From Paraburkholderia fungorum (GTDB taxonomy: Bacteria; Pseudomonadota; Gammaproteobacteria; Burkholderiales; Burkholderiaceae), in the NCBI RefSeq assembly GCF_900099835.1, contig NZ_FNKP01000003.1:992001-1056000 (forward strand): 64,000 nt of DNA, written 5' to 3'. The position numbers were made by a program, and so were the translations under genes. The notes beneath the pieces are model-generated. The model saw only the letters and a list, made by a program, of their open reading frames with translations, was not told the origin of the DNA and searched no databases. Positions 47,360 through 63,275 of the stretch are shown one piece after another (position 1 is the first letter of the stretch; each line of letters opens with the position of its first letter).

Positions 47360-50300
47360 TCATAGATTATCCTGACATACGTCGATTTCCGGTTCAGCCT
47401 CGGGATACCCGAATCTCCGCATGTCGTCGCGGCTTAGCCTGGGAACAGCCAGTAGCTGATGTTTGCATGCCTCGTCGATTAGTTGTTTGGGCTGCATGGT
47501 CGCGAGATGTACATCCCAAATGCGTGCGGTCGTGTCTGCCGATGCTGTAACGACGTGCGTGTCGTCTGGGCTGAAAGCAGCAAACGCGAGTGGCATCTGA
47601 TGTCCATTGAGTACCTCAATCTCAGTACCAGTATTAGTGTCCCAGACGCGCGCCGTTTTGTCGTCCGACGCTGTAACAATCCGTGTCCCGTCGCTGTTGA
47701 ACACAGCCGATTGGACTGCGCCTTCATGTCCTTTAATTTCCTTGAAGGGATGCCCAGTGTCCGCATCCCATATGCGCACGATTCCGTCCACCGACGCGGA
47801 GACGATGTGTTTGCCATCCGGGCTGAAGGCGGCGAAGGTCACGGGTTGCGGGTGCTCTTTTAGCCTCCTTACCTCCTGCCCCGTCGCCGCAACCAGAATG
47901 CGCACGGTATTCGCAGATGCAGTCACAACGAGCTTTCCGTCCGGACTGAATACGGCGGAATGCACTTTCCCTTCATGTTTCATCGGCGCTCCGATGGCAT
48001 GTCCTGTAGCAGCATCCCAGATGCGCACGTTCCCGTCATCTGACGCGGTGACTATGCGAGCTCCATCCGGATCGAAAGCTGCAAAACTGATCCGTTCCCC
48101 GTGTTGCATTGGCGTACCGATTTCCTGCTTCGTCGCCGTATCCCAGACATACGCGGTCTTGCCAGCTGCTGTCACGATGTATTTTGCGCCCTTGCTAAAC
48201 GCGGCGAAATTGATCGATTCCGAGTGCACTATGGGCGTGCCGACCTCACGACCAGTCGCTGCGTCCCAGATATACGCACTCCTGTCCGCCGTCGTCACGA
48301 TATACCTTCCGCCTGGACTAAAGACAGCAGAACGCACTCGCGCCGGATGCTTCAGCGGCGCACCAATCTCATGCTGAGGACTCGTATCCCAGATGCGCGC
48401 CGTATTGTCCTGTGACGCAGTCACTATTTGAGTGCCATCCCGACTAAAAGCCGCAGAATTCACCGCGTCCTGATGCTTCATCGCACGACCGATTTCTTTT
48501 CTCGTCGCGACATCCCAGATGCGCGCAGTGTCGTTCTTTGACGCGGTGACGATATAGTTGCCGTCAGGACTGAAAGCCGCACTATTGAACTGGTCCTGGG
48601 GGGCGATAGGGTCGCCAATTTCCTCCCTCGTCGTTGCATCCCAGATATGTGCTCCCTTATCAGACGCCGTAACGATATACCTACCGTCCTGGCTATATAC
48701 GGCAGTATGAATCGGCGCGCCGTGCTTCATGGCATCGCCGATCTCGTTTCCCGTCGCCACCTCCCAAATTCGTGCAGCCGCGTCGGCTGACGCGGTGACG
48801 ATCCGCATGCCATCAGGGCTGAACGTGACAGAATTGACTGTAGAACCGCTACGCACTGGCTGGCCGATTTTCTCGCCGGTAGCTGCATTCCATACGTGGA
48901 CAGATTTGTCCTCGAATGCAGCGACGATCAGATTCCCATCCTGGCTGAATGCGGCAGAGTGAACTGGATCCTTGATCTTTATCGTATCTCGGAGTTCAAC
49001 TCCTGTCGCAGCATTCCAAATACGTAGGGTTTTATCTTGCGACACGGTGATGATATGTGTACCGTCTCGACTGAATTCGGCAGAATTCACCGGCTTCTGA
49101 TGTCCACGGAGTTCCACTGTCTGAACCCCAGTTACTGCGTTCCAAATGCGTGCCGTGTTGTCCCATGACGTCGTAACGACACGCGACCCATCCGGGCTGA
49201 AACCAGCCGAATTGATCATTTGCCGATGTCCCAGGACCGTCGGCTTCCGTCCTGACTCAATGTTCCAGATAAGCGCCGTATTGTCGTCTGACGCGGTCAC
49301 GACGAATTTTCCATCTTCACTGAAGGCCGCAGATTCGACAATGTAATCGTGCGGAAGCACTCGGATCTGATGCCCATCCACAGCATCCCAAATTCTTGCG
49401 GTATTGTCGAAGGAAGCCGTGACGATTTTACTTCCATCCGGACTGAAGTTTGCGCTGTAGACGAAGCTCGAATGCCCCGTAAGTCGTTTAATTTCTTTTC
49501 CAGTCGATGTATCCCATATACGCGCGGTATTGTCCAACGATGCGGTGACGACGCGCGTCCCGTCATGGCTAAATCCCGCGAACGCGATGCCGTCCTGATG
49601 CCCTCTAAGCTCGGTCAATTGAGACCCGCTCGCTGCATCCCAGATACGCGCTACATTGTCGTCCGAGGACGTAACGATGCGTTTTCCGTCTCGACTGAAC
49701 TCTGCGAAATAGACCTGCCCTTGCTTTCCTTCCAGCGTCTTGATCTCGCGTCCCGATTCCACGTCCCAGATGTGTGCGTTTTTGTCTTGCGATGCCGTGA
49801 CGATGCGCGTCCCGTCGCTGTTGAAAGAGGCGGAAAGCACCTGATTGTGGTGCGCCATTGGCGGCCCGATTTCTTGATAGTTCACGGCATCCCAGACACG
49901 TGCGGTCTTGTCCTCGGAAGCGGTGGCGATACGCTTTCCATCCTGACTATAAACAGCAAAAAAGATCCGCCCCTGATGCCCTTTCAATTCGCCAATTTCC
50001 TGTGCTGTCGAGACGTCCCAGATGCGTGCAATCCCATCCCACGACGCAGTAACCACTCGTTTTCCGTCCGGACTGAAATTTGCAAAGAAGATCAAGCTGT
50101 CCGCGCCCAGGGTTCCAAGCGTAAGACGCAAATCTCCGTGTGCCAGAATAGAAGCGAGTTGTGCCGTTGCGAAGGACGGTGTGGCTACCGCTTTCGGTAG
50201 CGACTTGTCGATTTGGGCTCCCAGCACCGAAAATCGTAGTGCGCTGTCTTCGTTGCCGTGGAGAAATTCAGTCGCGGCGAGCTGACTCATCATGTTCGCC

Positions 50301-52441
50301 CGCTGGTGGTCAGCCACGCGTTGATTTTCACGCGCTAATTTCCACTGCCAGCCAGCAACGACGCCGAGTATGGCCATAGCCAATGCGGCAACCCCGACGC
50401 CTATACTGATGCGTTTGCTTTGCCTCGCCGCCTTTTTCAGGGCTGCCATTTTTTCGGATCGCTCTGTCTCCTCACGTTCGTCGGCGGCTGCCTTTTCTAG
50501 CTTCTCAGTCTCCTCACGATTTCTGCAAGCGGTCAGATAGAACCGATCAGCCGCATCGAGCTTGGCGGCCAGGTCTGCACGCAACAGCAGCGCATTTGCA
50601 TCGTCCAGTCGACCGCCGCGATGCACGAGCCAGCCATCAATTCGACTATGGGTATTCCATTCACGAGCAGCTCGTTTGATGCTTTCAAGGCTTGTGAGCG
50701 CACCAAGATCCTCCTGCAACCATTCTTTAAGCACGCTCCACTGCCGCAGTAAAGCTTCGTGGGCCGGCTCTATGGTTTGCTCACCGGTTATCGGATTGGT
50801 ATCCGTGGAGAGAAGCCTCTCCTCGACCAGGAGCTTGATCAGTGGCCGCGTTTCTTCAGGGAGCTCAGCGACCCGAGCCGTCTGTCGTCGTGGATTGCCT
50901 GTATCAGGGTCTATACCGGCTAGCCAGGGAATCAGGCCACGCTTCAAGAGTGCGAGACGCGCATCGCGATCACGCACAATACGATGATCCTTGTCCGCAG
51001 CGGTGAATGCCCTTTCGACGGCCGCCTCGATCGATCCTCTTATCCGACCCAGTGCCTCGTAGTCTTCGAGCCTCAGATGACCCGACGCGCCGTATTCGCG
51101 ATAGAGCCGCTCAAGCGTAAACGACAGCAGCGGCAGTGCATCGTGACTGCCTCCCTCCTCTATGTCAGCTAGCAATGCGTCGACGAGAGCCGGCTTGATT
51201 TCCAGCGGCCGGGAACTGTCCTTCATTCGCGCAGCGGGTCCCTCTATGACCAGTTGATACGCCCCACGCGGCATCGGAGTGAGACTTTGTGTCCGCTGGA
51301 TGATGCCTTCCAGTTCCTTTGCGGTTTGCAACTGCTCATATGCATCAGAGCGAATGGTGACCAGAACGAGCAACTCTGATTCAGGGTCGCCCATCAAGTC
51401 TCGGAGCAAAGCGAGAAAGGCAGCGCTCTCCGTAGCGCTTTCCGCTATGAAAAGCTCTTCCCCTTGATCGATTGCGAGTACCAGCATCGGTGGTCTAGCC
51501 GCTGTGCTCTCTTCCGCCTGCCCTCTGTGAGCGTGAGCAACCAACTCGTCCAGCAGGGAACGGAGCGTCGTTGCACCGCCAGAGACAGCTTCCCGGATCG
51601 CCGCCATGGTTTTGGCGTGGCCTTGAATTTTGAAGGCAGCTGCGAGCGAGTACACCAATCCCGCATCCCCATTGATAACAGAGCGTTCAGGGCGGATGAC
51701 TGGGAGCGGGAAATAGTTGCGTTCATCACGGCGTAGACGCGGCAGCAGACCTGCCCGTAAAAACGAGGACTTGCCCGCGCCCGATGCTCCGAGCAGGATC
51801 AGCAGACGCGGCGACACTCCGTCCTTGATGCCACGAATTCGATCGAGCGCCTCGATCATTCGCGCCTCCCGACCAAAGAAAATGCCCGCATCGGCAGCTT
51901 CCAGAGGCAGCAGGCCACGATACGGCGCACGATCAGGATCGTCCGCTGGAGGCCAGGCAAAGAAGCGTGCATCCAGCCCCGCGCGCTCCAACCCGCCCCG
52001 CAGCCGAGTCAGCCCTTCTTGGGAAAATGTGGCATGCACTTCTTCATGCGTACCCGGAAGAATGTCGCTCAGCATGATGTGATCATGCCCGGAAGCGAGC
52101 GGCACCACTTGCCACGTCCCAGTTAGCGTAGCTGGCAGCTCCCGGATGGGAATATCCTCAATCAATACTCCAAACAAACGTTTATTCAGGCGGCTCGCTA
52201 GATTGAACTCTTTCATACACCAATCAGAATCGAGCCACGCACGCGAGACCAGAAACAAAACCACTTCGCAGCGCGAAGCTGCGTTATAGAGGGCGCGCTC
52301 CCAGCGCTCTCCTGCCGCGATCCCTCGAAGCGGGTCGAGGTCCAGAAATACGTCGTCCCACCCCTGCGTGGCTAGCCAGCGCTTCAGAAGGAAAGCACAA
52401 CCATTATCGTCGCTTGAATGGCTAAGAAAGATACGAGACAT
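47360..52441 (-). CDS. TIR - STAND NTPase - transmembrane - WD40 (21 repeats) protein
   Basis: 1693 aa. Residues 1-135: TIR domain (RIFLSHSSDD; putative NADase Glu78 in SDWCMKEF). Residues about 172-640: STAND/nSTAND1-type NTPase with PYRGLLPLEAADAGIFFGRE, Walker A LLGASGAGKSS (Lys224) and Walker B LVLAIDQGEELF (Asp325). Residues about 640-675 coiled coil; 678-698 membrane segment (ISIGVGVAALAMAILGVVAG). Residues about 785-1690: 21 consecutive WD40-type repeats of the form F-S-x-D-G-x-x-I-V-T-A-S-x-D-x-x-A-R-I-W-D, enough for three seven-bladed propellers. ATG at 52441 precedes the TIR directly. Probably an NLR-like defence receptor. Converges on the patatin/sensor pair with 35 bases between stops. 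Confidence 0.9.
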   Translation of the reverse strand: MSRIFLSHSSDDNGCAFLLKRWLATQGWDDVFLDLDPLRGIAAGERWERALYNAASRCEVVLFLVSRAWLDSDWCMKEFNLASRLNKRLFGVLIEDIPIRELPATLTGTWQVVPLASGHDHIMLSDILPGTHEEVHATFSQEGLTRLRGGLERAGLDARFFAWPPADDPDRAPYRGLLPLEAADAGIFFGREARMIEALDRIRGIKDGVSPRLLILLGASGAGKSSFLRAGLLPRLRRDERNYFPLPVIRPERSVINGDAGLVYSLAAAFKIQGHAKTMAAIREAVSGGATTLRSLLDELVAHAHRGQAEESTAARPPMLVLAIDQGEELFIAESATESAAFLALLRDLMGDPESELLVLVTIRSDAYEQLQTAKELEGIIQRTQSLTPMPRGAYQLVIEGPAARMKDSSRPLEIKPALVDALLADIEEGGSHDALPLLSFTLERLYREYGASGHLRLEDYEALGRIRGSIEAAVERAFTAADKDHRIVRDRDARLALLKRGLIPWLAGIDPDTGNPRRQTARVAELPEETRPLIKLLVEERLLSTDTNPITGEQTIEPAHEALLRQWSVLKEWLQEDLGALTSLESIKRAAREWNTHSRIDGWLVHRGGRLDDANALLLRADLAAKLDAADRFYLTACRNREETEKLEKAAADEREETERSEKMAALKKAARQSKRISIGVGVAALAMAILGVVAGWQWKLARENQRVADHQRANMMSQLAATEFLHGNEDSALRFSVLGAQIDKSLPKAVATPSFATAQLASILAHGDLRLTLGTLGADSLIFFANFSPDGKRVVTASWDGIARIWDVSTAQEIGELKGHQGRIFFAVYSQDGKRIATASEDKTARVWDAVNYQEIGPPMAHHNQVLSASFNSDGTRIVTASQDKNAHIWDVESGREIKTLEGKQGQVYFAEFSRDGKRIVTSSDDNVARIWDAASGSQLTELRGHQDGIAFAGFSHDGTRVVTASLDNTARIWDTSTGKEIKRLTGHSSFVYSANFSPDGSKIVTASFDNTARIWDAVDGHQIRVLPHDYIVESAAFSEDGKFVVTASDDNTALIWNIESGRKPTVLGHRQMINSAGFSPDGSRVVTTSWDNTARIWNAVTGVQTVELRGHQKPVNSAEFSRDGTHIITVSQDKTLRIWNAATGVELRDTIKIKDPVHSAAFSQDGNLIVAAFEDKSVHVWNAATGEKIGQPVRSGSTVNSVTFSPDGMRIVTASADAAARIWEVATGNEIGDAMKHGAPIHTAVYSQDGRYIVTASDKGAHIWDATTREEIGDPIAPQDQFNSAAFSPDGNYIVTASKNDTARIWDVATRKEIGRAMKHQDAVNSAAFSRDGTQIVTASQDNTARIWDTSPQHEIGAPLKHPARVRSAVFSPGGRYIVTTADRSAYIWDAATGREVGTPIVHSESINFAAFSKGAKYIVTAAGKTAYVWDTATKQEIGTPMQHGERISFAAFDPDGARIVTASDDGNVRIWDAATGHAIGAPMKHEGKVHSAVFSPDGKLVVTASANTVRILVAATGQEVRRLKEHPQPVTFAAFSPDGKHIVSASVDGIVRIWDADTGHPFKEIKGHEGAVQSAVFNSDGTRIVTASDDKTARVWDTNTGTEIEVLNGHQMPLAFAAFSPDDTHVVTASADTTARIWDVHLATMQPKQLIDEACKHQLLAVPRLSRDDMRRFGYPEAEPEIDVCQDNL

Positions 52442-53097
52442 TTTGGCCTTCGATCTGAACGCAAAATCTACCTCGTCGATCAACGCAGAGATGGCTATGG
52501 ACTTGAGTACGCTCGATTTCAGATTCTTCGAAACTCGCATCCCTGCGACCGTAGTTATCTACACTAGCCGCTTTGCTTTGCAAGACGCCTACAGTCTGTG
52601 TGGTATTACACGCTGGCGCCGTTAAATTGAGTGTTTACGCCAATCCAGTCGAAGGATCGTAGAGGCGGCGTCGGCCAGCCACCAATCACATGGGAGGTTT
52701 GCTAACGATGGTCCCCCGTTACTCAACTGCGTGAATACTCAACCTATCCAGACCATAGCGTTCGCTATGGTTCTCGCACGCAAGCATCGTCGTATTATTT
52801 CAACGATCGCAGTCGGCCACATTGGCGACGTAGCGATCACCGGGCTCCAGCGGCGGCAATGGCCGAATTGTGCGCATAGTTTGTCGGTCAGGTAACGGCG
52901 TAATATCGCCGTTCTAACGGCAGGTTCGTCCGCTCGCTCAATTGCAGGTTGTGCCCGCGAACGGCTCACTTCGCGCTGATCATTCGCCGTGACGAGGACA
53001 GTTTAGTCACGGCTCCCGCATCAGTTCTACGCCTGTTTTTAACGCACCGGTAGTTTGGCGTCAGCGTAACACGTCGATAAAACAACGGTGACTAGGA
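52442..53097. other. Gene-free stretch with decayed-element signatures
   Basis: About 650 bases. Contains the second TTTGCTAACG copy (52698-52707) preceded by GGCCAGCC, a GCAATGGCCGAATT segment shared with 32.37 kb, and a GCCGTTCTAACGGC palindrome near 52908. No protein gene supported. Confidence 0.4.
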
Positions 53098-54867
53098 CTA
53101 TATTGCGAGGGGCTCAGACTGCTGAAACATTAGAGGCAACTCGTAAGAGCGCTGCTCTAGTGGATGCGCCCGATTGGTACAGCGAAACAGACCGGCGTGC
53201 TCATAGAAGGCCAAAAAATGTTGCAACTGCTGGTCGGGCTCCCCGTGGTCAATCTTCGGCTGGAGCAGTTTCCCGATATGCTTTTTTGCGTCCGCGTAGG
53301 TAAACTTCTCGATGTTTCTGGACCGCGATATCGTCTGCATCAGGAGCATTGCCGGACGTTTAAATTCTTCACTCAATCCAATAATTGTCTTCAAACTGAT
53401 CTCCCGTGTTTCTGCATATGCTTTCGTGACGTGTTCTCGAAGAATCAGAGGATATTCGCCATTTGTGTTTAATGATACATTTTGGTCGGGGTTTCCGCGG
53501 TAGTACTCTTTGGATTTTTCGACGCACGAATTCAGAAACTGGAGCATCACTCGCGGCGTGGTATGCCCGTTTGCGAAATGAAAATGTGTCGAAAGATACT
53601 CGTCAAGGTCGATAGGAACATTCTTTTTCCCCTTTACATTATGGCTGACTTTTCGAGGAAATATGGCGGTGATTAACGCTTGGCACGCAGCGTCCTGCGC
53701 ACTTGTATTGCGCGCATCATACTCATCGCGCTTGCGAGAGCTTAGGAAGATTTGCAGGTGCAGCAGTTTAAGCTTTAGATAGTCCATAAAAGACCCTTGA
53801 CCGATTAGCGCATCGGGGTCGGCATTTGCGGTGGTCAAAAGCTTCCTGTCGAGTTTCAGCGACTCGGCGTTGCAATTGAACCGCAAATTCCTTCGACCTA
53901 GTACGTTTACGAAATTATGAAAGATTCGCGAAGCGATGAACTGCCTGATGTCTTCGCTGCTCCACTTCAGTTCGGTTTTCTTGGGATCGATCTTGTCACG
54001 CCCGATAGCGGAAAAGTCGAGTCTTTCGAACAAGTCGCGACGAAGGAAGAGCTTCGGCTTTAAGCTCGGGTAGGATTGAAAGTCCCGCCACGTGTGGATC
54101 AAAGCCTGCAAAGTTGCTTTCTGAGTGTCGTACTCGTCGCCTGCTACAAACTCGTCAATTTTGTCCAGGAGGAGGTACACAACGGTCTTCTTTGCTCTCA
54201 AGAAATTGTTGATGTCTCGCTTGATTTGTGGCACATCGATGATCAGGGCATCATCAGAAGTATTTGCCACGTTCGCAGACGGCTCAACGGAAGCGTAAAA
54301 GTTTGGGACCATATATCCCATGTGGCCCCCTTCGAGCTTTACGCCAAAGGACTTCTTAGTGCTTTTGATTAGGTCCAGTAGACCCATTTTTTGCTCAGGT
54401 GACTTCCCAATTATTTTGAAGAATTCGTCTCTGATCTTAAGAAATTCTTTGTCAGCGGAGTAGTGGCCGTTTAGTGTTTCGAGGCAGCGGCTCAGTAAAT
54501 AAACTTCCCACACGATTCGGTGCGGAGCGTCCGGAGTGTTAACTGGATCTTTAATCTGGTCGATAATGTGCGTCTTGAGTGTCTTGTAGGCCAACTCCTC
54601 ATCTATTGCAACATAGATTTGAGTGAGCTTCCCGGCTGATTTAAACTCTAAGCGTCCCGCGGCGAGTAGCCTAAACAGGGCGGTTTTGCCTGTGCCTCGA
54701 TCACCCACGACGATCGATTTATTTTCTTCCAAGAATTCTAGGACTGGGGTAATAGGAAGTATGCAGCTCTCCAACAGCGGGTCATCGCGTCCGTCAGGCT
54801 CGCCAAAATAAAACTTCGACAAGTTTGACAGCGGGAATCTTTCCGGCAGATTCTCTATCCGATTCAT
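53098..54867 (-). CDS. P-loop ATPase, Sll1717-like
   Basis: 589 aa from ATG at 54867. SKFYFGEPDGRDDPLLESCI then Walker A VVGDRGTGKTALFRLL (Lys61) and a Walker B-like VVYLLLDKIDEFV match the family annotated as Sll1717-type P-loop ATPases, often found singly in accessory regions. The C-terminal half is helical with no recognised enzyme domain. AT-richer than core. Function unknown; a stand-alone defence ATPase is plausible by context only. Confidence 0.75.
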   Translation of the reverse strand: MNRIENLPERFPLSNLSKFYFGEPDGRDDPLLESCILPITPVLEFLEENKSIVVGDRGTGKTALFRLLAAGRLEFKSAGKLTQIYVAIDEELAYKTLKTHIIDQIKDPVNTPDAPHRIVWEVYLLSRCLETLNGHYSADKEFLKIRDEFFKIIGKSPEQKMGLLDLIKSTKKSFGVKLEGGHMGYMVPNFYASVEPSANVANTSDDALIIDVPQIKRDINNFLRAKKTVVYLLLDKIDEFVAGDEYDTQKATLQALIHTWRDFQSYPSLKPKLFLRRDLFERLDFSAIGRDKIDPKKTELKWSSEDIRQFIASRIFHNFVNVLGRRNLRFNCNAESLKLDRKLLTTANADPDALIGQGSFMDYLKLKLLHLQIFLSSRKRDEYDARNTSAQDAACQALITAIFPRKVSHNVKGKKNVPIDLDEYLSTHFHFANGHTTPRVMLQFLNSCVEKSKEYYRGNPDQNVSLNTNGEYPLILREHVTKAYAETREISLKTIIGLSEEFKRPAMLLMQTISRSRNIEKFTYADAKKHIGKLLQPKIDHGEPDQQLQHFLAFYEHAGLFRCTNRAHPLEQRSYELPLMFQQSEPLAI

Positions 54868-55404
54868 GTTCCGTTCGCTCTTTTCTTTTTTGTGGCGCAG
54901 TGCCGTGACAAGGGCTCCAATCATACTCGTCGCTAGCATATTTTGCGATGTTCAGCATGCGCAAGCATCACCAAGGTGTACAGCGGACCGTAGGCACGCA
55001 TAGTTTCGTTTCCGGGCCCATGCAGCGTTGTCGCATTACGGGTGCGCCAAATGATCAAAATGGTCTTAGCTTTGCGCGGTGATCTTCACTCTAAGCCCAT
55101 TGAGACGGGCATCAGCATCATGCGGTGGCAAAGGGACGGAGGTGCGAGTTCGCCGAAACTGAAAGCTGCCGTCCACTGTGCGCCGCCGCCGTCAGGAACC
55201 CGCCTCAATGCTGACGCAAAAATTCAGCAGGGCGCGATGTCGGCTTAGGCCGAACTCTCGTCTTCCAATGCGACTGTACGAACGTCCGTTGTACCGTGGA
55301 AGCCGCCCGATTTGTCGCGTAGGGTTGACCGGCCGCAGTGGGTCGAAGATCGACCACTTCGCAAAGCGCAAAATCAATCTCGCTTCATTGAAGAGGAGGT
55401 TGTC
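54868..55404. other. Gene-free stretch before the recombinase array
   Basis: About 540 bases between divergent genes; no gene seen. A GAGGAGG ribosome-binding site lies at its right end. Confidence 0.4.
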
Positions 55405-56031
55405 ATGAAAACGCTTAAATCTTCCGGCGCACGCAGGGTCCCTTGGAACAAGGGAAGGCTGACCGGTCAGAAACCGCCATTGAAACTCCGTGAGATCTGG
55501 GCAATTCGGACGAGACTTCAGATGTCGTCCAACGCTCGTGAACTGGCGCTGTTCAACCTTGCAATTGACAGCAAGCTTCGGGCGTGCGATCTGACGCGAC
55601 TGCAGGTGCAGGACGTCTACATGGGAGGTCATGTCGTAGCCCGCGCGACTTTCATGCAGCAGAAAACGCATAGACCGGTGCAGTTTGAAATCACGGAGCA
55701 GACTCGTCAGAGTGTCGCCGCCTGGATTTCCGCGCGAGGATTGACGCCTGCCGACTATTTGTTTCCGAGCCGGTTGCATGCCTCGGCGCACATCTCAACG
55801 CGCCAATATGCGCGCATCGTTCATCGCTGGGTCGCGTCGATCGGACTGGATGACACCGCGTATGGGACGCATACCATGCGACGCACGAAAGCGTCGTTGA
55901 TTTATCGACGCACCAAGAACCTACGCGCCGTCCAATTGCTGTTGGGCCATACAAAAATTGAAAGCACCGTGCGATACCTTGGAATCGAGGTAGACGATGC
56001 GCTCGAGATGGCCGAGCAGACTGAAGTTTGA
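55405..56031 (+). CDS. Short tyrosine recombinase (catalytic domain only)
   Basis: 208 aa. Catalytic residues: Arg59 (SKLRACDLTRLQ), Lys87 (MQQKTHRPVQF), His156/Arg159 (YGTHTMRRTKAS), His182 (LLLGHTKIES) and Tyr191 (VRYLGI). No N-terminal core-binding domain, so it is less than two-thirds the length of XerC/XerD. ATG at 55405 with GAGGAGG upstream. A dead copy of the same gene lies at 62999-63275 in the same orientation, bracketing the serine-recombinase/ParB genes. Confidence 0.9.
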   Translation: MKTLKSSGARRVPWNKGRLTGQKPPLKLREIWAIRTRLQMSSNARELALFNLAIDSKLRACDLTRLQVQDVYMGGHVVARATFMQQKTHRPVQFEITEQTRQSVAAWISARGLTPADYLFPSRLHASAHISTRQYARIVHRWVASIGLDDTAYGTHTMRRTKASLIYRRTKNLRAVQLLLGHTKIESTVRYLGIEVDDALEMAEQTEV

Positions 56032-56039
56032 TAGCTGGC

Positions 56040-56065
56040 GGCCGGCGAGCGTTCGCTTGTCGGCC
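56040..56065 (+). terminator. Hairpin after the tyrosine recombinase
   Basis: GGCCGGCGAGCG pairs with CGCTTGTCGGCC (10 of 12 standard pairs plus G-U) without a U-tract. Starts 9 bases after the stop. The rest of 56066-56455 has no supported gene. Confidence 0.35.
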
Positions 56066-56455
56066 GTCGTCAACGAGAAGAGGATTGCTATTGTTGACTT
56101 CTGTGGAAGCAAACAGTGCATCAACTTAGGAAACCTGGCCGACAACCCTTGCTTTCGCCCCGTCGTAACGAACCGAGACATCTTGAGGCGCGTATGCTAC
56201 CCATGCTCCATTTGCAAGCTCATATTTTGTTTGCGGCGGAGCAGGGGTTGACTGTTGATCTATGTCTGTAACCACATACGCAGCAAACACCTCAGTAGTG
56301 TGTTAAAGCCGAAAAATTTTCGATTCAGCTGCGTTAGCCTCGGGCGTGCGATGCAGTTGGGTCCCTAACAAAAGATCAAAAAATCCCAATTCTGACTGCT
56401 TGACTTGCACTGCGGCAGAGCTATCACTAAGGACAGCGTGCATCTGGAGGTTGGA

Positions 56456-58027
56456 ATGCAACACGTGGTCGGCTCGTCATCGTCTCTGGCTGGACGACTC
56501 GCGGCGCAATATGTGCGCATGTCGACGGACCATCAGGAGTATTCGACTGAAAATCAGAAACTAGCCATCGCCAATTTTGCGGAGAAGCAAGGCATCACTG
56601 TCGTCGCGACGTATGAGGATGCGGGCAAGAGCGGGGTAACGCTCAAAGGTCGGCCGGCTCTTCTTGACCTGCTTCAGGACGTCCAATCGCGCGCCAACGA
56701 GTTCAGTCTCGTTCTCGTCTACGACGTCAGTCGATGGGGACGCTTCCAGGACGTCGACGAATGCGCTCACTACGAGTACCTCTGCAGAGAGGCAGGCGTT
56801 CAGGTCGTCTATTGCGCAGAGCAATTCGCTTGGGACGGAAGTGCTTCGGCAGCCTTAATGAAAACGATTAAGCGAACGATGGCAGGTGAATATAGTCGCG
56901 AGCTTTCTCAAAAAGTGTTCGTTGGGCAATGCCGACTCGCTGAACTGGGATTCTGGCAAGGAGCTGCGCCAGGATACGGACTGCAACGGCTTTTGCTCGC
57001 ATCAGACGGCACGGTCAAGGGACGCTTATGCGACAAGGAACGCAAAAATATCCAGTCTGATAGGGTCATAGTAGTGCCCGGAGATGAACGCGAAGTTTCG
57101 CTCGTTCGGCGAATCTATGACTGGTACGTTATTCAGGGATTAGGATGCAAGAGGATTGCGGACAGGCTGAATGTATTCGGCCTGTGCAATAACCACGGTC
57201 GCCCCTGGAATCCTCAGCAAATCACAAGCATATTGAGCAATGAAAAATATGCTGGGACCAACGTCTATGGGAGGACTTCCAAAAAGCTCGGTGCGAACTG
57301 GCATAGGAACCTACCCTCTGAATGGTCGCGCGCACACGGAGCATTCCCAGCTCTCGTAGACCAGGTAACGTTTAAGGCAGCAGAAGCAATTCGGATAAAC
57401 AGGACGCAGAACCTCAGCGACGACGAAATCCTGAAAAGGTTAAAGGATTTCGTCCGTTCGAGCGAGGTCGTCAGTGCAAAGGCCATCGACGATGCGTCCG
57501 GAATGCCTGGAGGAAAGACATACTGGAGGCGTTTTGGATGCATGCAGTTCGCGTACGCGCGCGTGGGGTTTGAACGTGATTACGTCGGTGCAGGGCGTGA
57601 AGTCTATCGTGCATCTCGAGCTGCACTTCAGGGATGCATAGAAAGGACGACCGGTGCACTTAAGGCACTAGGTCACGTCATTGAAATATCAAGAGACGAG
57701 ACGACCATCCGGGTCGATGACGAACTGGTTGTCAGATTCGCAATATGCCTTGTTGTTCAATTCGATTCTCACCGCCCTCGCTGGCGGGTGCGCTGGCCAA
57801 CCTATTCCTCTCCGGACCTTCTGGTCGTACTCCGTCAGGACTCCGCGTTTGAACTGCCTCTCGATTTCTACGTTTTTCCGAGAGGTAGTTTGCCCCCCGG
57901 CTACGCATTCTCACTTTCCGTCAGGGTGGGAAGCAGCTGTCCTTTTGAAACATTCCGCTATCCGGACGAGAGTGTCCTGCTTGAATTGACAGAGCGGACT
58001 CGCATCGAGGCTTTAAATGTCAGATAA
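56456..58027 (+). CDS. Large serine recombinase 1
   Basis: 523 aa. N-terminal resolvase domain with nucleophile Ser23 (AAQYVRMSTDHQEYS), DAGKSGVTLKGRPAL and LVLVYDVSRWGRFQDVDE; then the recombinase domain (IYDWYVIQGLGCKRIADRLN, NHGRPWNPQQITSILSNEKY). Instead of a cysteine zinc ribbon it has a segment ending TYWRRFGCMQFAYARVGFER, like the RFGS-AY-GY repeats of homing-endonuclease-associated domains. The C-terminus is beta-rich and unknown. ATG at 56456 has GGAGG upstream. Its 3' end overlaps the ParB-like gene by 11 bases. Confidence 0.85.
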   Translation: MQHVVGSSSSLAGRLAAQYVRMSTDHQEYSTENQKLAIANFAEKQGITVVATYEDAGKSGVTLKGRPALLDLLQDVQSRANEFSLVLVYDVSRWGRFQDVDECAHYEYLCREAGVQVVYCAEQFAWDGSASAALMKTIKRTMAGEYSRELSQKVFVGQCRLAELGFWQGAAPGYGLQRLLLASDGTVKGRLCDKERKNIQSDRVIVVPGDEREVSLVRRIYDWYVIQGLGCKRIADRLNVFGLCNNHGRPWNPQQITSILSNEKYAGTNVYGRTSKKLGANWHRNLPSEWSRAHGAFPALVDQVTFKAAEAIRINRTQNLSDDEILKRLKDFVRSSEVVSAKAIDDASGMPGGKTYWRRFGCMQFAYARVGFERDYVGAGREVYRASRAALQGCIERTTGALKALGHVIEISRDETTIRVDDELVVRFAICLVVQFDSHRPRWRVRWPTYSSPDLLVVLRQDSAFELPLDFYVFPRGSLPPGYAFSLSVRVGSSCPFETFRYPDESVLLELTERTRIEALNVR

Positions 58028-58928
58028 CACCTTGGCTCCAATCTCGGATATCAGTGTGAGCAGCATTCGCGTACTCAATCCGCGGAGCCGTAGCAAGCGC
58101 CAAAGACAAACGCTTCAGGAGAGCATCGCAGCGGTGGGACTGAAAAAACCCATCACAGTCACGCCTTGCGCATCGCAAGAAGATACGTTCGAGTTCGACC
58201 TCGTCTGCGGACAGGGACGACTTGAAGCTGTGCAGGCACTGGGGCATGGAACTATTCCCGCGAATATCATTGACCAGCCTGAAGACGAGTGTCTGGTGAT
58301 GAGTCTCGTGGAAAACATCGCCAGACGCAATCACTCAACGCTTGAGCTGCTGAGAGACATCCAAAACTTACGAATGAGCGGATACTCCGACAGCATCGTC
58401 GCAGAAAAAGTGGGACTCTCGCCTGCATATCTGGAAAGTCTGATGTTTCTCCTGGACCGGGGCGAGGAAAGGCTTATTACCGCTGTTGAAGCCGGAACAA
58501 TGCCTATCGCTATCGCCGTCCAGATTTCACGGGCGAATGACGCCGACGTTCAGTCCGCGTTGGTTGACGCTTATGAGGAGGGAACGCTAACAGGTCCTCA
58601 ATTGGCCGTCGTTCGCAGGCTACTGAGTCGTCGTTCGCGTGCGGGAGGAAAATCGTTACCCATCTACGCCGGTCCTTCCGGTCCTCGTTCACACGAATTG
58701 GCTCCGGACCAATTACGTCGTTTATACATGCGGGAAAGTGAACGTCAAAGAGTTCTCGCAAAAAGAGTTGAATTGGTGCACGCGCGTCTGTCGTTTATTG
58801 TCCATGCTCTACGTGAGCTCATGCGCGAGCGCGAATTCGTAGGCCTGCTTGAGCAGGAGGGCCTTACCACTCTTCCTCGAGTCCTCGACCAACGTATCCG
58901 TGGGGAGGTTAAATCATGGATTCATTGA
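58017..58928 (+). CDS. ParB/RepB-like protein A
   Basis: 303 aa. ParB N-terminal domain: VLNPRSRSKRQRQTLQESIA, FDLVCGQGRLEAVQALGHGT and VMSLVENIARRNHSTLELLR, the last being the box II-like ENIAR signature. A HTH follows (SDSIVAEKVGLSPAYLESLM). The C-terminal 70 residues (VLAKRVELVHARLSFIVHAL, RELMREREFVGLLEQEGLTT) reappear in the protein at 62087. Overlaps both neighbours (11 and 13 bases). ParB domains are CTP-dependent DNA clamps; partition is the default role, but linkage to a recombinase suggests another use. Confidence 0.85.
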   Translation: MSDNTLAPISDISVSSIRVLNPRSRSKRQRQTLQESIAAVGLKKPITVTPCASQEDTFEFDLVCGQGRLEAVQALGHGTIPANIIDQPEDECLVMSLVENIARRNHSTLELLRDIQNLRMSGYSDSIVAEKVGLSPAYLESLMFLLDRGEERLITAVEAGTMPIAIAVQISRANDADVQSALVDAYEEGTLTGPQLAVVRRLLSRRSRAGGKSLPIYAGPSGPRSHELAPDQLRRLYMRESERQRVLAKRVELVHARLSFIVHALRELMREREFVGLLEQEGLTTLPRVLDQRIRGEVKSWIH

Positions 58929-59878
58929 CAGTCCAACCCCTTAAAACTACCTTCGAAACGCAGCCCGTCGTTCTTCACTTGAATACACTGGAATCGTCAA
59001 GGCAGCTTCCGAGAACAGCCACCTCTGGGAAAAAATTCCTGCAGATTCTCGCATCCATCGCGACGGTCGGCCTCGTGGAGCCTTTGATTGTCGCGCGCAT
59101 TGCGGGCAGCGCAGAGGTGTTCCGTATTCTCGACGGTCGACTGCGGATTGAGGCGTTGCGTCGCCTAGGCCTTGAGAAGGCACAGTGCATCATCGCAACG
59201 GATGATGAGGCGTACACATACAATCGATACATCAGCCGATTAACCTCTGCACAGGACGCGCGGATGATAGCCAAGGCAATTGGGCAGGGTGTCTCAAGGG
59301 AGCGTATCGCTCAGGTATTGGGAATTGACGTCAACACGGTCAAGCGTCGGGCCAGTCTACTCGAAGGTATTTCGCCGGAAGCGGCGGTTTTGCTTGGGGA
59401 TAAGATGTGTCCGGCGACTACATTCAGAGCGTTGAAGCTCCTCAAACCGCTGCGTCAGATTGCTGCAGTTGAGCTTATGTGCGGTCAGGGAAACTTTACG
59501 TCGTCGTTCGCGCGAGCAATTGTCGCAGCGACTCCGCCGGAGCAGCTTGAGCCGGGTTCCGACCGGAAGGTGCGGAGCGAAGTTGCGGAGCAACTCGCTA
59601 CGCTGGAACGTGAACTCGCCATGCTTCAGACTGCCGTTGCCCAGACCGACGAGCGGTATGGAATCGAACATCTTCATCTCACGGTGTCAGCGGCTTACGT
59701 TGCAAAACTGATGGGAAATGGGTGCCTCAGACAATGGCTCGATGAGCATCATCCCGATTACTCGACTCAATTCGACACTATCAGCAGTGACGCACAGTCA
59801 GCGCGCTCGAGGCCCAGTACACGCGAACCCCGGTCAAAGAACTTTCGAAGGGTTGAGGCAAAGACAGCGGGGAGATAG
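58916..59878 (+). CDS. ParB/RepB-like protein B with RepB C-terminal domain
   Basis: 320 aa. ParB-type N-terminus: ILASIATVGLVEPLIVARIA, FRILDGRLRIEALRRLGLEK; HTH: ISRERIAQVLGIDVNTVKRR-like segment (about residues 125-145). The C-terminus has LKPLRQIAAVELMCGQGNFT, SSFARAIVAATPPEQLEPG, typical of the plasmid partition RepB C-terminal family. The central ENIAR box is weak (SRLTSAQDARMIA). Overlaps protein A by 13 bases. Confidence 0.82.
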   Translation: MDSLTVQPLKTTFETQPVVLHLNTLESSRQLPRTATSGKKFLQILASIATVGLVEPLIVARIAGSAEVFRILDGRLRIEALRRLGLEKAQCIIATDDEAYTYNRYISRLTSAQDARMIAKAIGQGVSRERIAQVLGIDVNTVKRRASLLEGISPEAAVLLGDKMCPATTFRALKLLKPLRQIAAVELMCGQGNFTSSFARAIVAATPPEQLEPGSDRKVRSEVAEQLATLERELAMLQTAVAQTDERYGIEHLHLTVSAAYVAKLMGNGCLRQWLDEHHPDYSTQFDTISSDAQSARSRPSTREPRSKNFRRVEAKTAGR

Positions 59879-59998
59879 CTGATGACGGGCAAGAGACTTG
59901 GCTGGCTGAGTGACCAGACGTTGCCGAAGCGCATGCACGATACCGCTGGTGCATGGCATTGAGGCTGCTGAAGAGATTAATGAAGAGGCATGAGAAAC

Positions 59999-60379
59999 AT
60001 GGACTCATACGGTTCAATTCCCTACAACCTCGACGGCCAGGCGCGGGCGGAACTGCTGGCATATCTGGTGGTTTCTCAACTCATTGCACGAGCACGGACT
60101 GGAGAATGGTTGGTTTCTCAGCATCTTGGAGAATCGGTGCTGCTCTGGCTGTGTGCAAACGGCGCAAATTGCCCTGCGCGGGAACGAGCTGCCCTGTCGA
60201 AGCTCTCGGTCATGGTCGCGATAGAGTTTCTCCAGAAGCCGGAATGCAACGATGAAACGTGGCTCAACCAGTTGTTTGCGGGAAGTTGGCGTATCGATTA
60301 CCGGCGGCCTAGTGCGCCGACGCTACACAAAGTATGTGTCGACAAGCTGGCCAAACAGGGACTGGCCGACGGACCCTGA
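59999..60379 (+). CDS. Small hypothetical protein between the two recombinase modules
   Basis: 126 aa from ATG at 59999 (GAGG about 11 bases upstream; ATG 59990 is too close to it). Helical, with RAELLAYLVVSQLIARARTG and VLLWLCANGANCPARERAAL. No family recognised. On the same strand as the whole array, so possibly an accessory DNA-binding factor. Confidence 0.5.
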   Translation: MDSYGSIPYNLDGQARAELLAYLVVSQLIARARTGEWLVSQHLGESVLLWLCANGANCPARERAALSKLSVMVAIEFLQKPECNDETWLNQLFAGSWRIDYRRPSAPTLHKVCVDKLAKQGLADGP

Positions 60380-60509
60380 AACCAGGCAACACAGCCGATG
60401 ACCCGGGCTGACGACGGCCCCCCTGACGCTGCATACAGGCTGCGTCACCCTTTCTTGCCACTTCGGTCAGATGGCTTATCCATCAGCGCGAGCATGAAGG
60501 AGCACCGAA

Positions 60510-62090
60510 ATGCAACCTAGCCGCAGCGGGCGTCAGCCCGCTCCTTCGCTACAGCGCGCTGTTCAATACCTACGGATGTCAACAGACCAGCAGCAATGCT
60601 CGCCGATATTTCAGCGGCAAGCCATTGCCGAATACGCTTCTGTACGGTCAATTCGCATTATCAGGGATTACGAAGATGCAGGCATCAGTGGGCTGACGCT
60701 TCGGGCCCGGCCAGCACTTAACCAGCTACTTATCGATGTTGCCGACCCGCAGCGCCGTTTCTCACTTGTGCTTGTCTACGACGTGAGTAGATGGGGAAGA
60801 TTTCAGGATGTCGACGAATCGGCCTTTTACGAATACCTGTGCAAACGCCACGGCGTTAAAGTCGTCTATGTGGCAGAACCGTTCGAAGTGGACCCTAGTC
60901 CAATGTCGCCGGTCATGAAAACGCTCAAGCGGGTAATGGCGGCCGAGTACAGCAGGGAACTGTCCCGGAAGGTGTTCCTCGGTCATTGCGTCCTCGCGGA
61001 GCGCGGGTTTCACGTCTGCGGGCGCCCGCCTTACGGGTATCAGCGAGTCCTGTACGAAGAAAAACGCGGCTCGACACGCACGCTCGAGAAATACGAATAC
61101 AAAAGTATCAGGACGGACCGGGTCACGCTGATGCCAGCAGCAGCGGGACAGGTAGGTATCGTCGGCAAGATTTTCGAGTGGTACGCATGGGGGAAGGCAG
61201 ACTGCACACAAATCGCCAGGAGGCTCAATGATTTTGGTCTGGTCAACGGCGATAACCGGCCCTGGTTGCCTCGACACATCGCGCAGATTCTCCATAATCC
61301 CGCTTACATGGGAGTCGGCGTCTACAGTCGGACATCATCGAAACTGGCGGGTGGCTGGCACCGAGTACCGGAAGAACAGTGGATAACTGTTCCGAAGGCG
61401 TTCCCTGCCATCGTTGACCAAAAGACTTTCTCAGCGGTGCAGACACGCTTCGCCGGCTACCGCCGCCCACCGAACCGGGACGAACTGCTCTCTGGTCTAA
61501 GGATGGTCGTGCGTAAATATGGGAAGGTTAGCCAGCAGTTACTCAAGCATTACCGCCGGGCGCCCTCTGCGACAGCCGTGGCAGCAGAGTTTGGGAGTCT
61601 CAACGCGGCATATCGGGAGATTGGCTATGCGCCAAACCTGAATCCCGAGCGTGAAGAGAATCGCGACATCGAGCACCGCGCAGAAGCGCTTTTAGCACGC
61701 GTGACTTCCGAAGCTCTCGCCGAACGAGGCCACCTGGTGACATATGAGAAGCATTCACTCACGCTTTGCGTCGACAACCTGATTCGATTTCAGATTGTTG
61801 CTCGTGGCCCCTGGATGGTCGATGGGAAAACTCCGTACTGGAGTGCACGGTGGCCAGACAGGTTCAATATCGACTTTCTGGTGTATTGCCGGATGCTGAG
61901 GGGTATCCGGGAATTTCTCGACTTCTTTGTCATTCCCGCCGGACGTATTCAGCCGGGTAAGTTCGCAACACTCGTGGGTCCCAACGCAGAGGATTTCAAC
62001 CTGTTGCGACATTCTGACCTGCGTATTCTGCTGGACCTGACTGACAGTGTAGGACTGACGCAGGTTGGACGTTTTTTGGAGCGTAGATGA
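60510..62090 (+). CDS. Large serine recombinase 2
   Basis: 526 aa paralogue of recombinase 1. Nucleophile Ser24 (VQYLRMSTDQQQ), LVLVYDVSRWGRFQDVDESA, VMKTLKRVMAAEYSRELSRK; recombinase domain CTQIARRLNDFGLVNGDNRP, WLPRHIAQILHNPAYMGVGV. Also lacks zinc-ribbon cysteines and has TAVAAEFGSLNAAYREIGYA in the corresponding place. The C-terminal domain aligns with that of recombinase 1 (SARWPDRFNIDFLVYCRML versus RVRWPTYSSPDLLVVLRQD). Overlaps the downstream gene by 4 bases. Confidence 0.85.
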   Translation: MQPSRSGRQPAPSLQRAVQYLRMSTDQQQCSPIFQRQAIAEYASVRSIRIIRDYEDAGISGLTLRARPALNQLLIDVADPQRRFSLVLVYDVSRWGRFQDVDESAFYEYLCKRHGVKVVYVAEPFEVDPSPMSPVMKTLKRVMAAEYSRELSRKVFLGHCVLAERGFHVCGRPPYGYQRVLYEEKRGSTRTLEKYEYKSIRTDRVTLMPAAAGQVGIVGKIFEWYAWGKADCTQIARRLNDFGLVNGDNRPWLPRHIAQILHNPAYMGVGVYSRTSSKLAGGWHRVPEEQWITVPKAFPAIVDQKTFSAVQTRFAGYRRPPNRDELLSGLRMVVRKYGKVSQQLLKHYRRAPSATAVAAEFGSLNAAYREIGYAPNLNPEREENRDIEHRAEALLARVTSEALAERGHLVTYEKHSLTLCVDNLIRFQIVARGPWMVDGKTPYWSARWPDRFNIDFLVYCRMLRGIREFLDFFVIPAGRIQPGKFATLVGPNAEDFNLLRHSDLRILLDLTDSVGLTQVGRFLERR

Positions 62091-62905
62091 CTGCGCGTAC
62101 TCGCCCGGTCGCCGGTGACCACCAGAGCGATGTATCGAAGACATCGCGATATTGCCGCTTGCCACGACTTGAACGGATGCAGGCAGTGATGCGGGCGCAA
62201 TGTATCCGCATAAAACGCACCGCAAACGCAATGAAGCACATCGCGGAAGGAAATCGGCGGCTACGACGACTTCTCGACGACTTGCTTCGCGACACGGGAT
62301 TCATCTCGCTTCTCGACGAAGTTGGCATAAAGCGGATTCCCAGTATGCTGGTCTCTCGAATCGTCCACACGACCTCGGAAGGTGGTGCTGTCGGCGGGCG
62401 GCAGCCTGTTTCGACCTTCGACGTGCCTATGCAGGAGCAGTCAGAGAGCCGATTCGCGGCCCCTGATTGTTTGCCCGAACGCACGACGCTTTGCCTCAGC
62501 TGCATGAGTAACTTTCGACGGCGCCAGGTGCTCGAACTGATGCGGCAAACTCGTTGCTTCACGGGAGACTTCGCGTTGGCACTTCTTGTAGCTTCGCCTG
62601 CGGCAGAGCTTGTTAATCAAAGTCGGAGCGTGAGGTATGACAGCGATTACGTTGCGGGCCTTCAGCGGCAAGAACGGAAACTGCAGAAAGCGGTTTCCAT
62701 TGTTGGTCTACTCCGTCAGGAACATCCCTTAATGCTGGTTGAGCGAACTCTCCACCTCGTGGTAGGACGTCAGCTACTCGCGCGAGCGCCAGTCAGGACG
62801 TGGCTTGTACGCCAGTCGCCAGAATACCTTGCTTCGATTATGCAATTAGGAGCAGGCAAAGGCCCAAAACGTGTCTCGCGTCGGCCGATTCGCGTCGCAG
62901 AATAG
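62087..62905 (+). CDS. Protein resembling the joined C-terminal parts of ParB-like A and B
   Basis: 272 aa, no ParB N-terminal (CTP-binding) domain. Residues about 30-95 (RLRRLLDDLLRDTGFISLLD, EVGIKRIPSMLVSRI) align with the end of protein A (RELMREREFVGLLEQEGLTT, LPRVLDQRI). Residues about 140-265 (RRRQVLELMRQTRCFTGDFA, LALLVASPAAELV) align with the RepB C-terminal domain of protein B (LRQIAAVELMCGQGNFTSSF, ARAIVAATPPEQL). ATG overlaps the serine recombinase 2 stop. So each recombinase is followed by the same C-terminal pieces, once on two proteins and once on one. Confidence 0.75.
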   Translation: MTARTRPVAGDHQSDVSKTSRYCRLPRLERMQAVMRAQCIRIKRTANAMKHIAEGNRRLRRLLDDLLRDTGFISLLDEVGIKRIPSMLVSRIVHTTSEGGAVGGRQPVSTFDVPMQEQSESRFAAPDCLPERTTLCLSCMSNFRRRQVLELMRQTRCFTGDFALALLVASPAAELVNQSRSVRYDSDYVAGLQRQERKLQKAVSIVGLLRQEHPLMLVERTLHLVVGRQLLARAPVRTWLVRQSPEYLASIMQLGAGKGPKRVSRRPIRVAE

Positions 62906-62998
62906 ATGGTGGACGGGCGGGCACCGCCCGCCGCTTCTGGCGGTGACAGCGCCAGCGTGAAAAATGCTGGACCGACGACAACACGAATCTGTCCTTGA

Positions 62999-63275
62999 CA
63001 AACGCAGCGTCTCGTTCAGTTCGAAATTTCAGAGCAAACCCGCGAATGCGTGGAGAGTGAATCTAACCAGGTAACCTTCCGCCTTCGGACGCTCTTTTCG
63101 AGCCGACGTCACGGATCGCCCCAAATATCGGCGCAGCAATACGTGCGTGTCGTGCATCGCTGGATTGCTTCCGACTGATCTTAATGATGCAGCGTACGGA
63201 AGACGCCCGATGCGCCGCACGAAGGCATCCCTGATCAACGGCCCCAAAAAACTGCGGACGGTGGAATTGCTTCTC
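62999..63275 (+). pseudogene. Dead copy of the short tyrosine recombinase
   Basis: Plus-strand reading VQFEISEQTRECVE, QISAQQYVRVVHRWIAS, stop, then in a new frame LNDAAYGRRPMRRTKASLIN and LRTVELLL. These align in order with residues 87-180 of the 55405 gene. The His of HxxR is Arg here, an internal stop and frameshift are present, and the Tyr region is missing. Confidence 0.8.

What the first reader, a model, noticed from the sequence alone, without database searches (positions are those of the whole stretch)
55405..63275. Two-module serine-recombinase/ParB array bracketed by tyrosine recombinase copies
Order on one strand: tyrosine recombinase, serine recombinase 1, ParB-like A, ParB-like B, small ORF, serine recombinase 2, ParB C-terminal fusion, dead tyrosine recombinase. 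Overlaps of 11, 13 and 4 bases tie each recombinase to its ParB-type genes. Serine recombinases usually need at most a small directionality factor; having ParB-type clamps as dedicated partners would be a new way to control synapsis or excision. No replication gene or ParA is present, so ordinary plasmid partition is unlikely.
Basis: partly seen in the sequence, partly recalled or inferred. Interest (0 to 1): 0.82.

Follow-up and report, generated by a model that had tools for sequence, protein, structure and literature searches.

The report
Serine recombinase with two ParB-like partners
A DNA-rearranging enzyme is encoded, in many unrelated bacteria and mobile elements, in one tight operon with two relatives of the chromosome-segregation clamp ParB and without the usual ParA motor, which points to an undescribed way of controlling DNA recombination.

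Summary
The array is real. Its core is a conserved three-gene operon: a large serine recombinase (SR), ParB-A and ParB-B. The tyrosine recombinases that "bracket" it are not part of it: a second copy in the same genome (96% identical over 56,350-62,906, plus a short block at 56,260-56,300) lacks them. Of 80 genome loci found with ParB-B, 70 hold all three genes in order, 6 are cut by a contig end, 4 are partial. In a separate search of 58 same-genus genomes, 32 of 33 SRs have ParB-B within 2.5 kb. The three families diverge together (r 0.76-0.92); dN/dS is below 0.45 for every gene tested, the fused truncated ParB included. A ParA motif lies near 1 of 80 loci. In Sphingobium plasmids the unit is present or absent at one slot. 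Palindromes upstream (15 of 85, 2.9 expected; range chosen after a first look) suggest ParB sites, though the window's own upstreams lack one. Best reading: a recombination module with ParB-family proteins as dedicated partners, probably controlling pairing of sites, direction or expression. Ten literature searches showed no description. Recombination, att sites and mechanism are inferred. Against: several viral records carry a different serine integrase too, and ParB-B stands alone in both S. meliloti plasmids examined.

The parts
56262..56300 (+). conserved non-coding block upstream of SR1 (ATGTCTGTAACCACATACGCG...), candidate ParB-binding or attachment half-site
   Evidence: kept in 6 further distinct Paraburkholderia SR1 loci (9 locus ids, three of them seen twice) and in the C2 copy, while DNA to its left is unrelated; function inferred
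56400..56427 (+). predicted SR1 promoter (TTGACT, 16 bp, TATCAC)
   Evidence: -35/-10 pair seen in the upstream alignment of most SR1 relatives; the same type precedes SR2 relatives
56456..58027 (+). SR1: serine recombinase, 523 aa, catalytic residues intact, no zinc ribbon detected
   Evidence: PF00239 + PF07508; invariant Y19, R21, S23, R93, R96
58017..58928 (+). ParB-A, 303 aa; ParB N-domain + RepB (PF07506); CGxGR and ENxARR invariant among relatives
58916..59878 (+). ParB-B, 320 aa; diverged paralogue, lacks the EN motif, has invariant DDEAYTYN
59990..60379 (+). small ORF (SM), 129 aa, accessory gene of unknown function, relatives in 9 loci, window and C2 copy included
   Evidence: no family hit
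60510..62090 (+). SR2: second serine recombinase, 526 aa, ~42% identical to SR1
62087..62905 (+). fusion of C-terminal parts of ParB-A and ParB-B (partner of SR2), 272 aa
   Evidence: hhalign to both families; dN/dS 0.39 and 0.29
55405..56031 (+). tyrosine recombinase, 208 aa; neighbour, not part of the module
   Evidence: PF00589; none found beside the second copy of the array
62999..63275 (+). tyrosine recombinase remnant; neighbour, not part of the module

Best explanation
A self-contained site-specific recombination module, SR + ParB-A + ParB-B, carried by plasmids, islands and prophage regions. Shown: the three genes form one conserved, co-diverging, often overlapping operon; the recombinase keeps its catalytic residues and lacks a detectable zinc ribbon, the domain through which the phiC31 directionality factor binds; ParB-A keeps the nucleotide-binding motifs of ParB clamps while ParB-B has lost one and has its own invariant motif; palindromic parS-like sites are enriched upstream of the recombinase; the unit is present or absent as a block in Sphingobium plasmids. 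Inferred: ParB-A and ParB-B act as a pair (possibly a heterodimer), bind the site next to the recombinase gene, contact the recombinase through their C-terminal halves, and so decide when and between which sites it recombines (pairing of sites and/or direction), also dampening expression of the operon. In the SR2 module this is reduced to the C-terminal contact part alone.
For: Operon in 70 of 80 ParB-B loci, 6 cut by contig ends, 4 partial. 34 of 44 viral loci hold all three, the other 10 being cut by the record's end. With the SR as query: 32 of 33 SR hits in 58 same-genus genomes (4 of the 33 are the own genome's) have ParB-B within 2.5 kb on either side; 30 of 35 ParB-B hits have an SR. 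Of 229 class-level genomes, strong ParB-B hits only in the own genome, G321 and G326, each beside an SR or SR fragment. Distance correlation SR/ParB-A 0.76, SR/ParB-B 0.81, ParB-A/ParB-B 0.92 over 66 trios, permutation maximum 0.19. dN/dS 0.08-0.17 for SR1, ParB-A, ParB-B, SR2. 16-bp palindromes at -260 to -150 in 15 of 85 upstreams, shuffle mean 2.9, maximum 7 of 100. No zinc ribbon in 32 SRs at E 0.01; in 3 of 4 other serine recombinases it is found, one of the 3 below Pfam's cut-off. Discrete unit in Sphingobium plasmids.
Against: No recombination, excision or binding was observed. Attachment sites are not established: in the Paraburkholderia arrays the similarity simply stops at the last gene's stop codon. 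In 9 of 21 viral records a different serine recombinase is present, towards the opposite end from the trio in 8, and L036/L052 carry another serine recombinase beside a tRNA gene, so the trio may not be the integrase of those elements. The palindrome range was chosen; the window's own two upstream regions lack a perfect palindrome, and 5 of the 15 come from the related SR2 group. ParB-B stands alone in L071, in both S. meliloti pSymA regions examined (L099, L100; Sinorhizobium makes up 49 of the 101 plasmid records), and in 5 of 35 genus hits. Of the 70, ParB-A is shortened or split in L008, L016 and L077.
Confidence: 0.5

Rival explanations
1. The two ParB-like proteins are only repressors of the operon (KorB-like): they bind the upstream palindrome and silence the promoter at a distance, and the recombinase works alone.
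For: Palindromes lie upstream of the promoter in several clades; KorB is a clamp that silences promoters up to 1.5 kb away (PMC11790492, abstract seen). ParB, Noc and KorB are the nearest solved relatives.
Against: A pure repressor needs DNA binding, but SR2's partners have lost the ParB and helix-turn-helix stretches and still show dN/dS of 0.1-0.43. In 55 of 80 loci another small gene, of HTH, Cro/C1, zinc-like or SM type, lies near the SR.
Confidence: 0.25
2. A maintenance module: the recombinase resolves multimers and the ParB pair helps partition a plasmid or excised circle.
For: ParB-B relatives on 101 of 72,556 plasmid records; in Sphingobium the trio sits on conjugative plasmids.
Against: ParA-type motif near 1 of 80 loci; trios lie on complete chromosomes too (Dyella CP007444, Cupriavidus CP074381) and on two large contigs of the own genome; a trio-bearing and four trio-less Sphingobium plasmid regions show a separate ParA.
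Confidence: 0.1
3. A cargo unit moved by other recombinases (tyrosine trios, prophage serine integrases), with a function unrelated to its own mobility.
For: A different serine recombinase towards the other end in 8 of 21 viral records; tyrosine recombinases around the Sphingobium slot, which also holds ars or nhaA genes.
Against: Catalytic residues invariant in 32 of 32 SRs aligned; two-module arrays occur with unrelated immediate flanks.
Confidence: 0.15

Closest known systems
Phage large serine integrases with a directionality factor (phiC31 Int + gp3; Bxb1 recalled)
   Same: serine recombinase with resolvase and recombinase domains; a second protein controls direction
   Different: no zinc ribbon detected in the trio recombinase; gp3 has no ParB domain (Pfam Gp3-like only); two ParB paralogues in one operon
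SCC cassette recombinases CcrA/CcrB/CcrC
   Same: best NCBIfam hits of SR1 and SR2 (CcrB, E 2e-18 and 3e-14)
   Different: 66 and 52 bits against a cut-off of 900; no ParB partners known for Ccr (recalled)
KorB / Noc / ParB CTPase clamps
   Same: ParB-A and ParB-B are related by sequence, ParB-B also by fold, and ParB-A keeps the nucleotide motifs
   Different: no ParA; partner is a recombinase
RepB of repABC plasmids (PF07506)
   Same: both partners hit PF07506
   Different: no RepA/RepC seen; 34.5 and 21.6 bits against the RepB equivalog cut-off of 201.5
RP4 parCBA (ParA resolvase + ParB nuclease)
   Same: a serine recombinase beside a gene called parB (recalled)
   Different: RP4 ParB is a nuclease, not a ParB clamp (recalled): a likeness of names only
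Orphan ParB proteins of mobile elements (PNAS 2025 survey, PMC12704722)
   Same: ParB fold outside parAB, linked to mobile elements
   Different: passages seen name no recombinase partner; recombinase, integrase and RepB have no occurrence in its main text

Membership tests
large serine recombinase | catalytic resolvase domain with serine nucleophile and arginines | tested here: met
   PF00239 in 32 of 32; Y19, R21, S23, R93, R96 invariant
large serine recombinase | recombinase domain PF07508 | tested here: met
   32 of 32
large serine recombinase | zinc beta-ribbon (PF13408) of phage integrases | tested here: not met
   0 of 32 at E 0.01; control 3 of 4, one below Pfam's cut-off
ParB CTPase clamp | ParB N-domain with nucleotide motifs | tested here: met
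   ParB-A: CGxGR and ENxARR invariant in 34; ParB-B has the ParB fold but lacks the EN motif
ParB CTPase clamp | binding and hydrolysis of CTP, sliding | not testable with these tools
   needs biochemistry
ParABS / repABC partition system | ParA ATPase in the operon | tested here: not met
   KGGxGK[TS] ORF within the fetched flanks (up to 10 kb) in 1 of 80 loci; 0 of 80 by tblastn with 4 ParA and 1 RepA queries
SCC Ccr recombinases | score above the NCBIfam cut-off | tested here: not met
   66 and 52 bits against 900
integrative element with defined att sites | attL/attR and an empty attB | tested here: inconclusive
   Sphingobium: present/absent unit, short shared core at the left junction and a 75-bp flanking repeat in L093; not shown elsewhere

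The most novel reading that the evidence does not exclude
A new class of site-specific recombination system in which a serine recombinase is licensed by a ParB-type CTP clamp pair: the clamp loads at a parS-like site beside the recombinase gene, slides or bridges to the crossover site, and nucleotide state sets synapsis or direction; SR2 modules have evolved past the clamp, keeping only the recombinase-contacting part.
Probability: 0.3. Interest if true: 0.88.

Novelty: new variant of a known kind. Interest (0 to 1): 0.7.

Why it matters
How serine recombinases choose sites and direction is a central question and the basis of genome-engineering tools; the known controllers that I am aware of are single accessory proteins. 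A recombinase family bound, across many lineages, to two ParB-family proteins would give ParB clamps a role outside segregation and gene silencing, and would offer a new, possibly nucleotide-gated switch. The reduced SR2 modules are a natural domain-deletion experiment that says which part of ParB to test first.

Tried and rejected
Tyrosine-recombinase brackets as element ends: rejected. Recollection that the phiC31 directionality factor gp3 has a ParB domain: tested and rejected. tRNA attachment: tRNAs in 9 of 79 genome loci, 1 of 24 viral and 0 of 5 plasmid loci scanned, at no constant distance. Conserved TTTAACAAYYCGGA plus hairpin after ParB-B in Azonexus/Thiobacillus relatives: attC-like or terminator, left open. 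Empty sites in the genus by DNA search: no near relative, flanks too mixed. Agrobacterium slot between scpB and tniQ: trio or chemotaxis genes, but the junctions coincide with gene ends or, in L222, with a leftover of ParB-B, so no precise end. The 75-bp repeat in Sphingobium L093 may instead come from joining two plasmid lineages: its left flank matches L220 at 97%, its right flank matches L218 at 97% and L220 at only 79%. PADLOC: no hit for the trio but a weak methyltransferase match of ParB-B. The ParB-A model was made but not searched against structures. Literature: 10 searches, several with no paper holding all terms; I judged most papers by the listing and opened five: PMC6536676, PMC9203015 and PMC12704722 (passages), PMC11790492 and PMC5814800 (outline and abstract). 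None of what I saw describes such an operon; subscription papers and preprints are not covered.
Full report
What is there. The window lies in an 8.6-Mb, four-contig genome. On the + strand from 56,456 to 62,905 run SR1, ParB-A, ParB-B, a small ORF, SR2 and a fused ParB fragment. The tyrosine recombinase at 55,405 and the remnant near 63,000 lie outside: the genome holds a second copy of the array on contig C2, 96.2% identical over 56,350-62,906 plus a 41-bp block at 56,260-56,300; its flanks are unrelated, and no relative of the tyrosine recombinase was found in the 20 kb around it. The remnant is only ~51% identical to the left gene over 59 residues.

The module. A scan of genome contigs with ParB-B gave 132 stretches, 98 relatives, 80 kept. 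A script found SR, ParB-A and ParB-B in a row in 68 of 80; on inspection L079 and L083 hold all three too (in L083 SR and ParB-A share one reading frame), making 70. Six are cut by a contig end (L017, L027, L031, L032, L043, L067). Four are partial: L012, L051 and L084 with a truncated SR and/or ParB-A, L071 with ParB-B alone. Among the 70, ParB-A is shortened or split in L008, L016 and L077, and the SR of L074 is cut by the contig start. L019 and L020 are the same 20.8 kb twice in one genome. Hosts are mostly Pseudomonadota, with records labelled Acidobacteria groups, Myxococcales, Armatimonadetes and others, several of them MAGs.

Independent co-occurrence. To avoid anchoring on ParB, SR1 and ParB-B were searched separately. 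In 58 same-genus genomes (own included, which gives 4 SR and 2 ParB-B hits) 32 of 33 SR hits (E <= 1e-40) had a ParB-B hit within 2.5 kb on either side; the exception carries a stop. Of 35 ParB-B hits (E <= 1e-10, fragments included) 30 had an SR nearby. In 229 class-level genomes strong ParB-B hits occurred only in the own genome, G321 (complete trio) and G326 (SR fragment beside ParB-B, no ParB-A); G307 had SR fragments alone; two weak SR hits (31-35% identity) had no ParB-B beside them. In viral contigs 34 of 44 loci held all three; the other 10 are cut by the record's end. In plasmids 101 of 72,556 records matched ParB-B, 55 over at least 80% of it. Of the 12 such plasmid regions that I fetched (L091-L102), 10 hold the trio and two, from S. 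meliloti pSymA (L099, L100), hold ParB-B alone. As 49 of the 101 records are Sinorhizobium, lone ParB-B may be common on plasmids; I examined only two.

Coherence and selection. Over 66 trios pairwise distances correlate: SR/ParB-A 0.757, SR/ParB-B 0.808, ParB-A/ParB-B 0.917; the best of 1000 permutations was 0.19. This shows shared history, which an operon inherited as a block would also give. ParB-A and ParB-B overlap by 4 bases in 44 of 66, SR and ParB-A in 32 of 66, by longest ORF. Window against C2 copy: dN/dS 0.08 (SR1), 0.12 (ParB-A), 0.11 (ParB-B), 0.17 (SR2), 0.32 (small ORF, few changes), 0.39 (fusion); fusion against L109 0.29. No significance test was made.

The second module. In 14 loci with an SR more than 50% identical to SR2, ParB ends follow as one fused ORF in 4 (window, C2, L109, L114), as two ORFs of ~100-130 and ~200-250 aa in 5 (L006, L009, L010, L160, L161), and as a ParB-A end in the short stretch held in 4 (L118, L119, L122, L123); in L120 no ParB-A end was seen, though its genome G054 has a ParB-B end beside the SR. 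The fusion keeps ParB-A 264-298 and ParB-B 166-286, without the ParB N-domains and the HTH. dN/dS of the separate pieces is 0.27-0.43 (ParB-A end) and 0.10-0.23 (ParB-B end). So the C-terminal parts stay with the recombinase when the clamp and DNA-binding parts are lost. The order of the modules is SR2-SR1 in L006, L009, L010, G119 and G064 and SR1-SR2 in the window and its C2 copy.

The proteins. All 32 aligned SRs have PF00239 and PF07508, none the zinc ribbon at E 0.01; 7 match HNH_repeat. Of 4 other serine recombinases from the same kind of loci 3 show the zinc ribbon, one of them below Pfam's cut-off. In phiC31 the directionality factor binds via the zinc domain (PMC5814800, title and abstract). 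ParB-A matches Spo0J, ParB, Noc and KorB chains by sequence and keeps CGxGR and ENxARR in 34 of 34. ParB-B's model (pLDDT 80.7) finds Noc, ParB and KorB first (E ~1e-9, but TM only 0.25-0.30 by query over ~200 aligned columns); it lacks the EN motif and has DDEAYTYN in 33 of 33.

Sites. Upstream of SR1 relatives a block ATGTCTGTAACCACATACGCG (6 further distinct loci and the C2 copy) and a TTGACT-TATCAC promoter are conserved, and what lies further left differs. In other clades a 16-bp palindrome sits at a like distance: 15 of 85 non-redundant upstreams against a shuffle mean of 2.9 (maximum 7 of 100) and random windows 4.4 (maximum 9); neighbouring ranges show 4 and 3, as expected by chance. 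The range was picked after a first listing. Five of the 15 are the related TTCGCA-N4-TGCGAA of SR2 relatives, and the window's own two upstreams are not among the 15. A small extra gene of one of four types lies near an SR in 55 of 80 loci.

Mobility. In Sphingobium conjugative plasmids a 5.6-kb unit (L091 7,563-13,163: CoiA-like, DeoR-like, SR, ParB-A, ParB-B, small ORF) is present in L091-L094 and missing at the same right-hand junction in L218-L221, where nhaA (L218, L219), ars (L220) or recombinase and IS genes (L221) sit; the left flank is matched too in L218-L220. The left junction shares CGGCYGTGAGG in all four although L093 differs from the others to its left; in L093 a 75-bp repeat (81%) flanks the unit and is single in L220. 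Arrays in Paraburkholderia G036, G132 and G064 are 83-89% identical with unrelated immediate flanks (G036 and G132 share a 0.6-kb hns-like stretch some kilobases away). This fits a mobile unit but does not show that the SR moves it.

Results against. Of 21 viral records of 30 kb or more, 2 had a tyrosine integrase; 17 had a PF00239 match, and 9 of the 21 a different serine recombinase (E <= 6e-39), towards the opposite end from the trio in 8 and within 5 kb of that end in 7; G389 has a further partial one that I did not class. Record ends are as IMG/VR gives them. So the trio is not plainly those viruses' integrase. L036 and L052, from different genera, share 11.6 kb that carries the trio and another serine recombinase whose frame overlaps a tRNA-Arg gene. 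No recombination was observed.

Rivals and novelty. Partition is unlikely: a ParA-type Walker motif occurs in 1 of 80 loci within the fetched flanks, and four ParA and one RepA queries found none there, while finding those of the plasmids. Pure repression does not explain partners without DNA-binding domains. Ten literature searches showed no such operon; the 2025 survey of ParB folds speaks of orphan ParBs of mobile elements but not of a recombinase partner (passages; word counts zero). Plasmid annotations name the ParBs 'plasmid partitioning protein RepB C-terminal domain-containing protein', so the genes are annotated but, as far as these searches go, not understood.

Noticed in passing
window 47360-52540 (-): 1726-aa protein with a TIR-like start, an NTPase-like middle and WD40-like repeats (by eye), possibly a defence STAND protein, near the array; only weak ThsB-like hits in PADLOC.
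   Followed up: partly
window 53098-54939 (-): P-loop ATPase of the Sll1717 family (NF047389), also a weak PADLOC candidate hit.
   Followed up: partly
L091 7400-17600 and L218-L221: A cargo slot in sphingomonad conjugative plasmids beside a DUF2493 gene holds the trio unit, nhaA/SLC13 genes or an ars operon in turn.
   Followed up: partly
L061, L063, L069, L070, L047, L056, L082 just after ParB-B: Conserved TTTAACAAYYCGGA, followed by a variable GC-rich hairpin in those read; looks attC-like or a terminator.
   Followed up: no
L024 and L028, ~30-150 bases after ParB-B: About 115 bp nearly identical while the trio region is only 85% identical.
   Followed up: no
L099, L100 (S. meliloti pSymA): ParB-B without SR or ParB-A in a 2.6-kb segment shared by two plasmids.
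   Followed up: partly
L208, L213, L214: A DUF2924-like gene (name recalled) next to the other serine recombinase of viral records that also carry the trio.
   Followed up: partly
L095 and L096, 7023-14438: 7.4 kb with the trio, 99.99% identical on two Roseomonas mucosa plasmids with different flanks.
   Followed up: no
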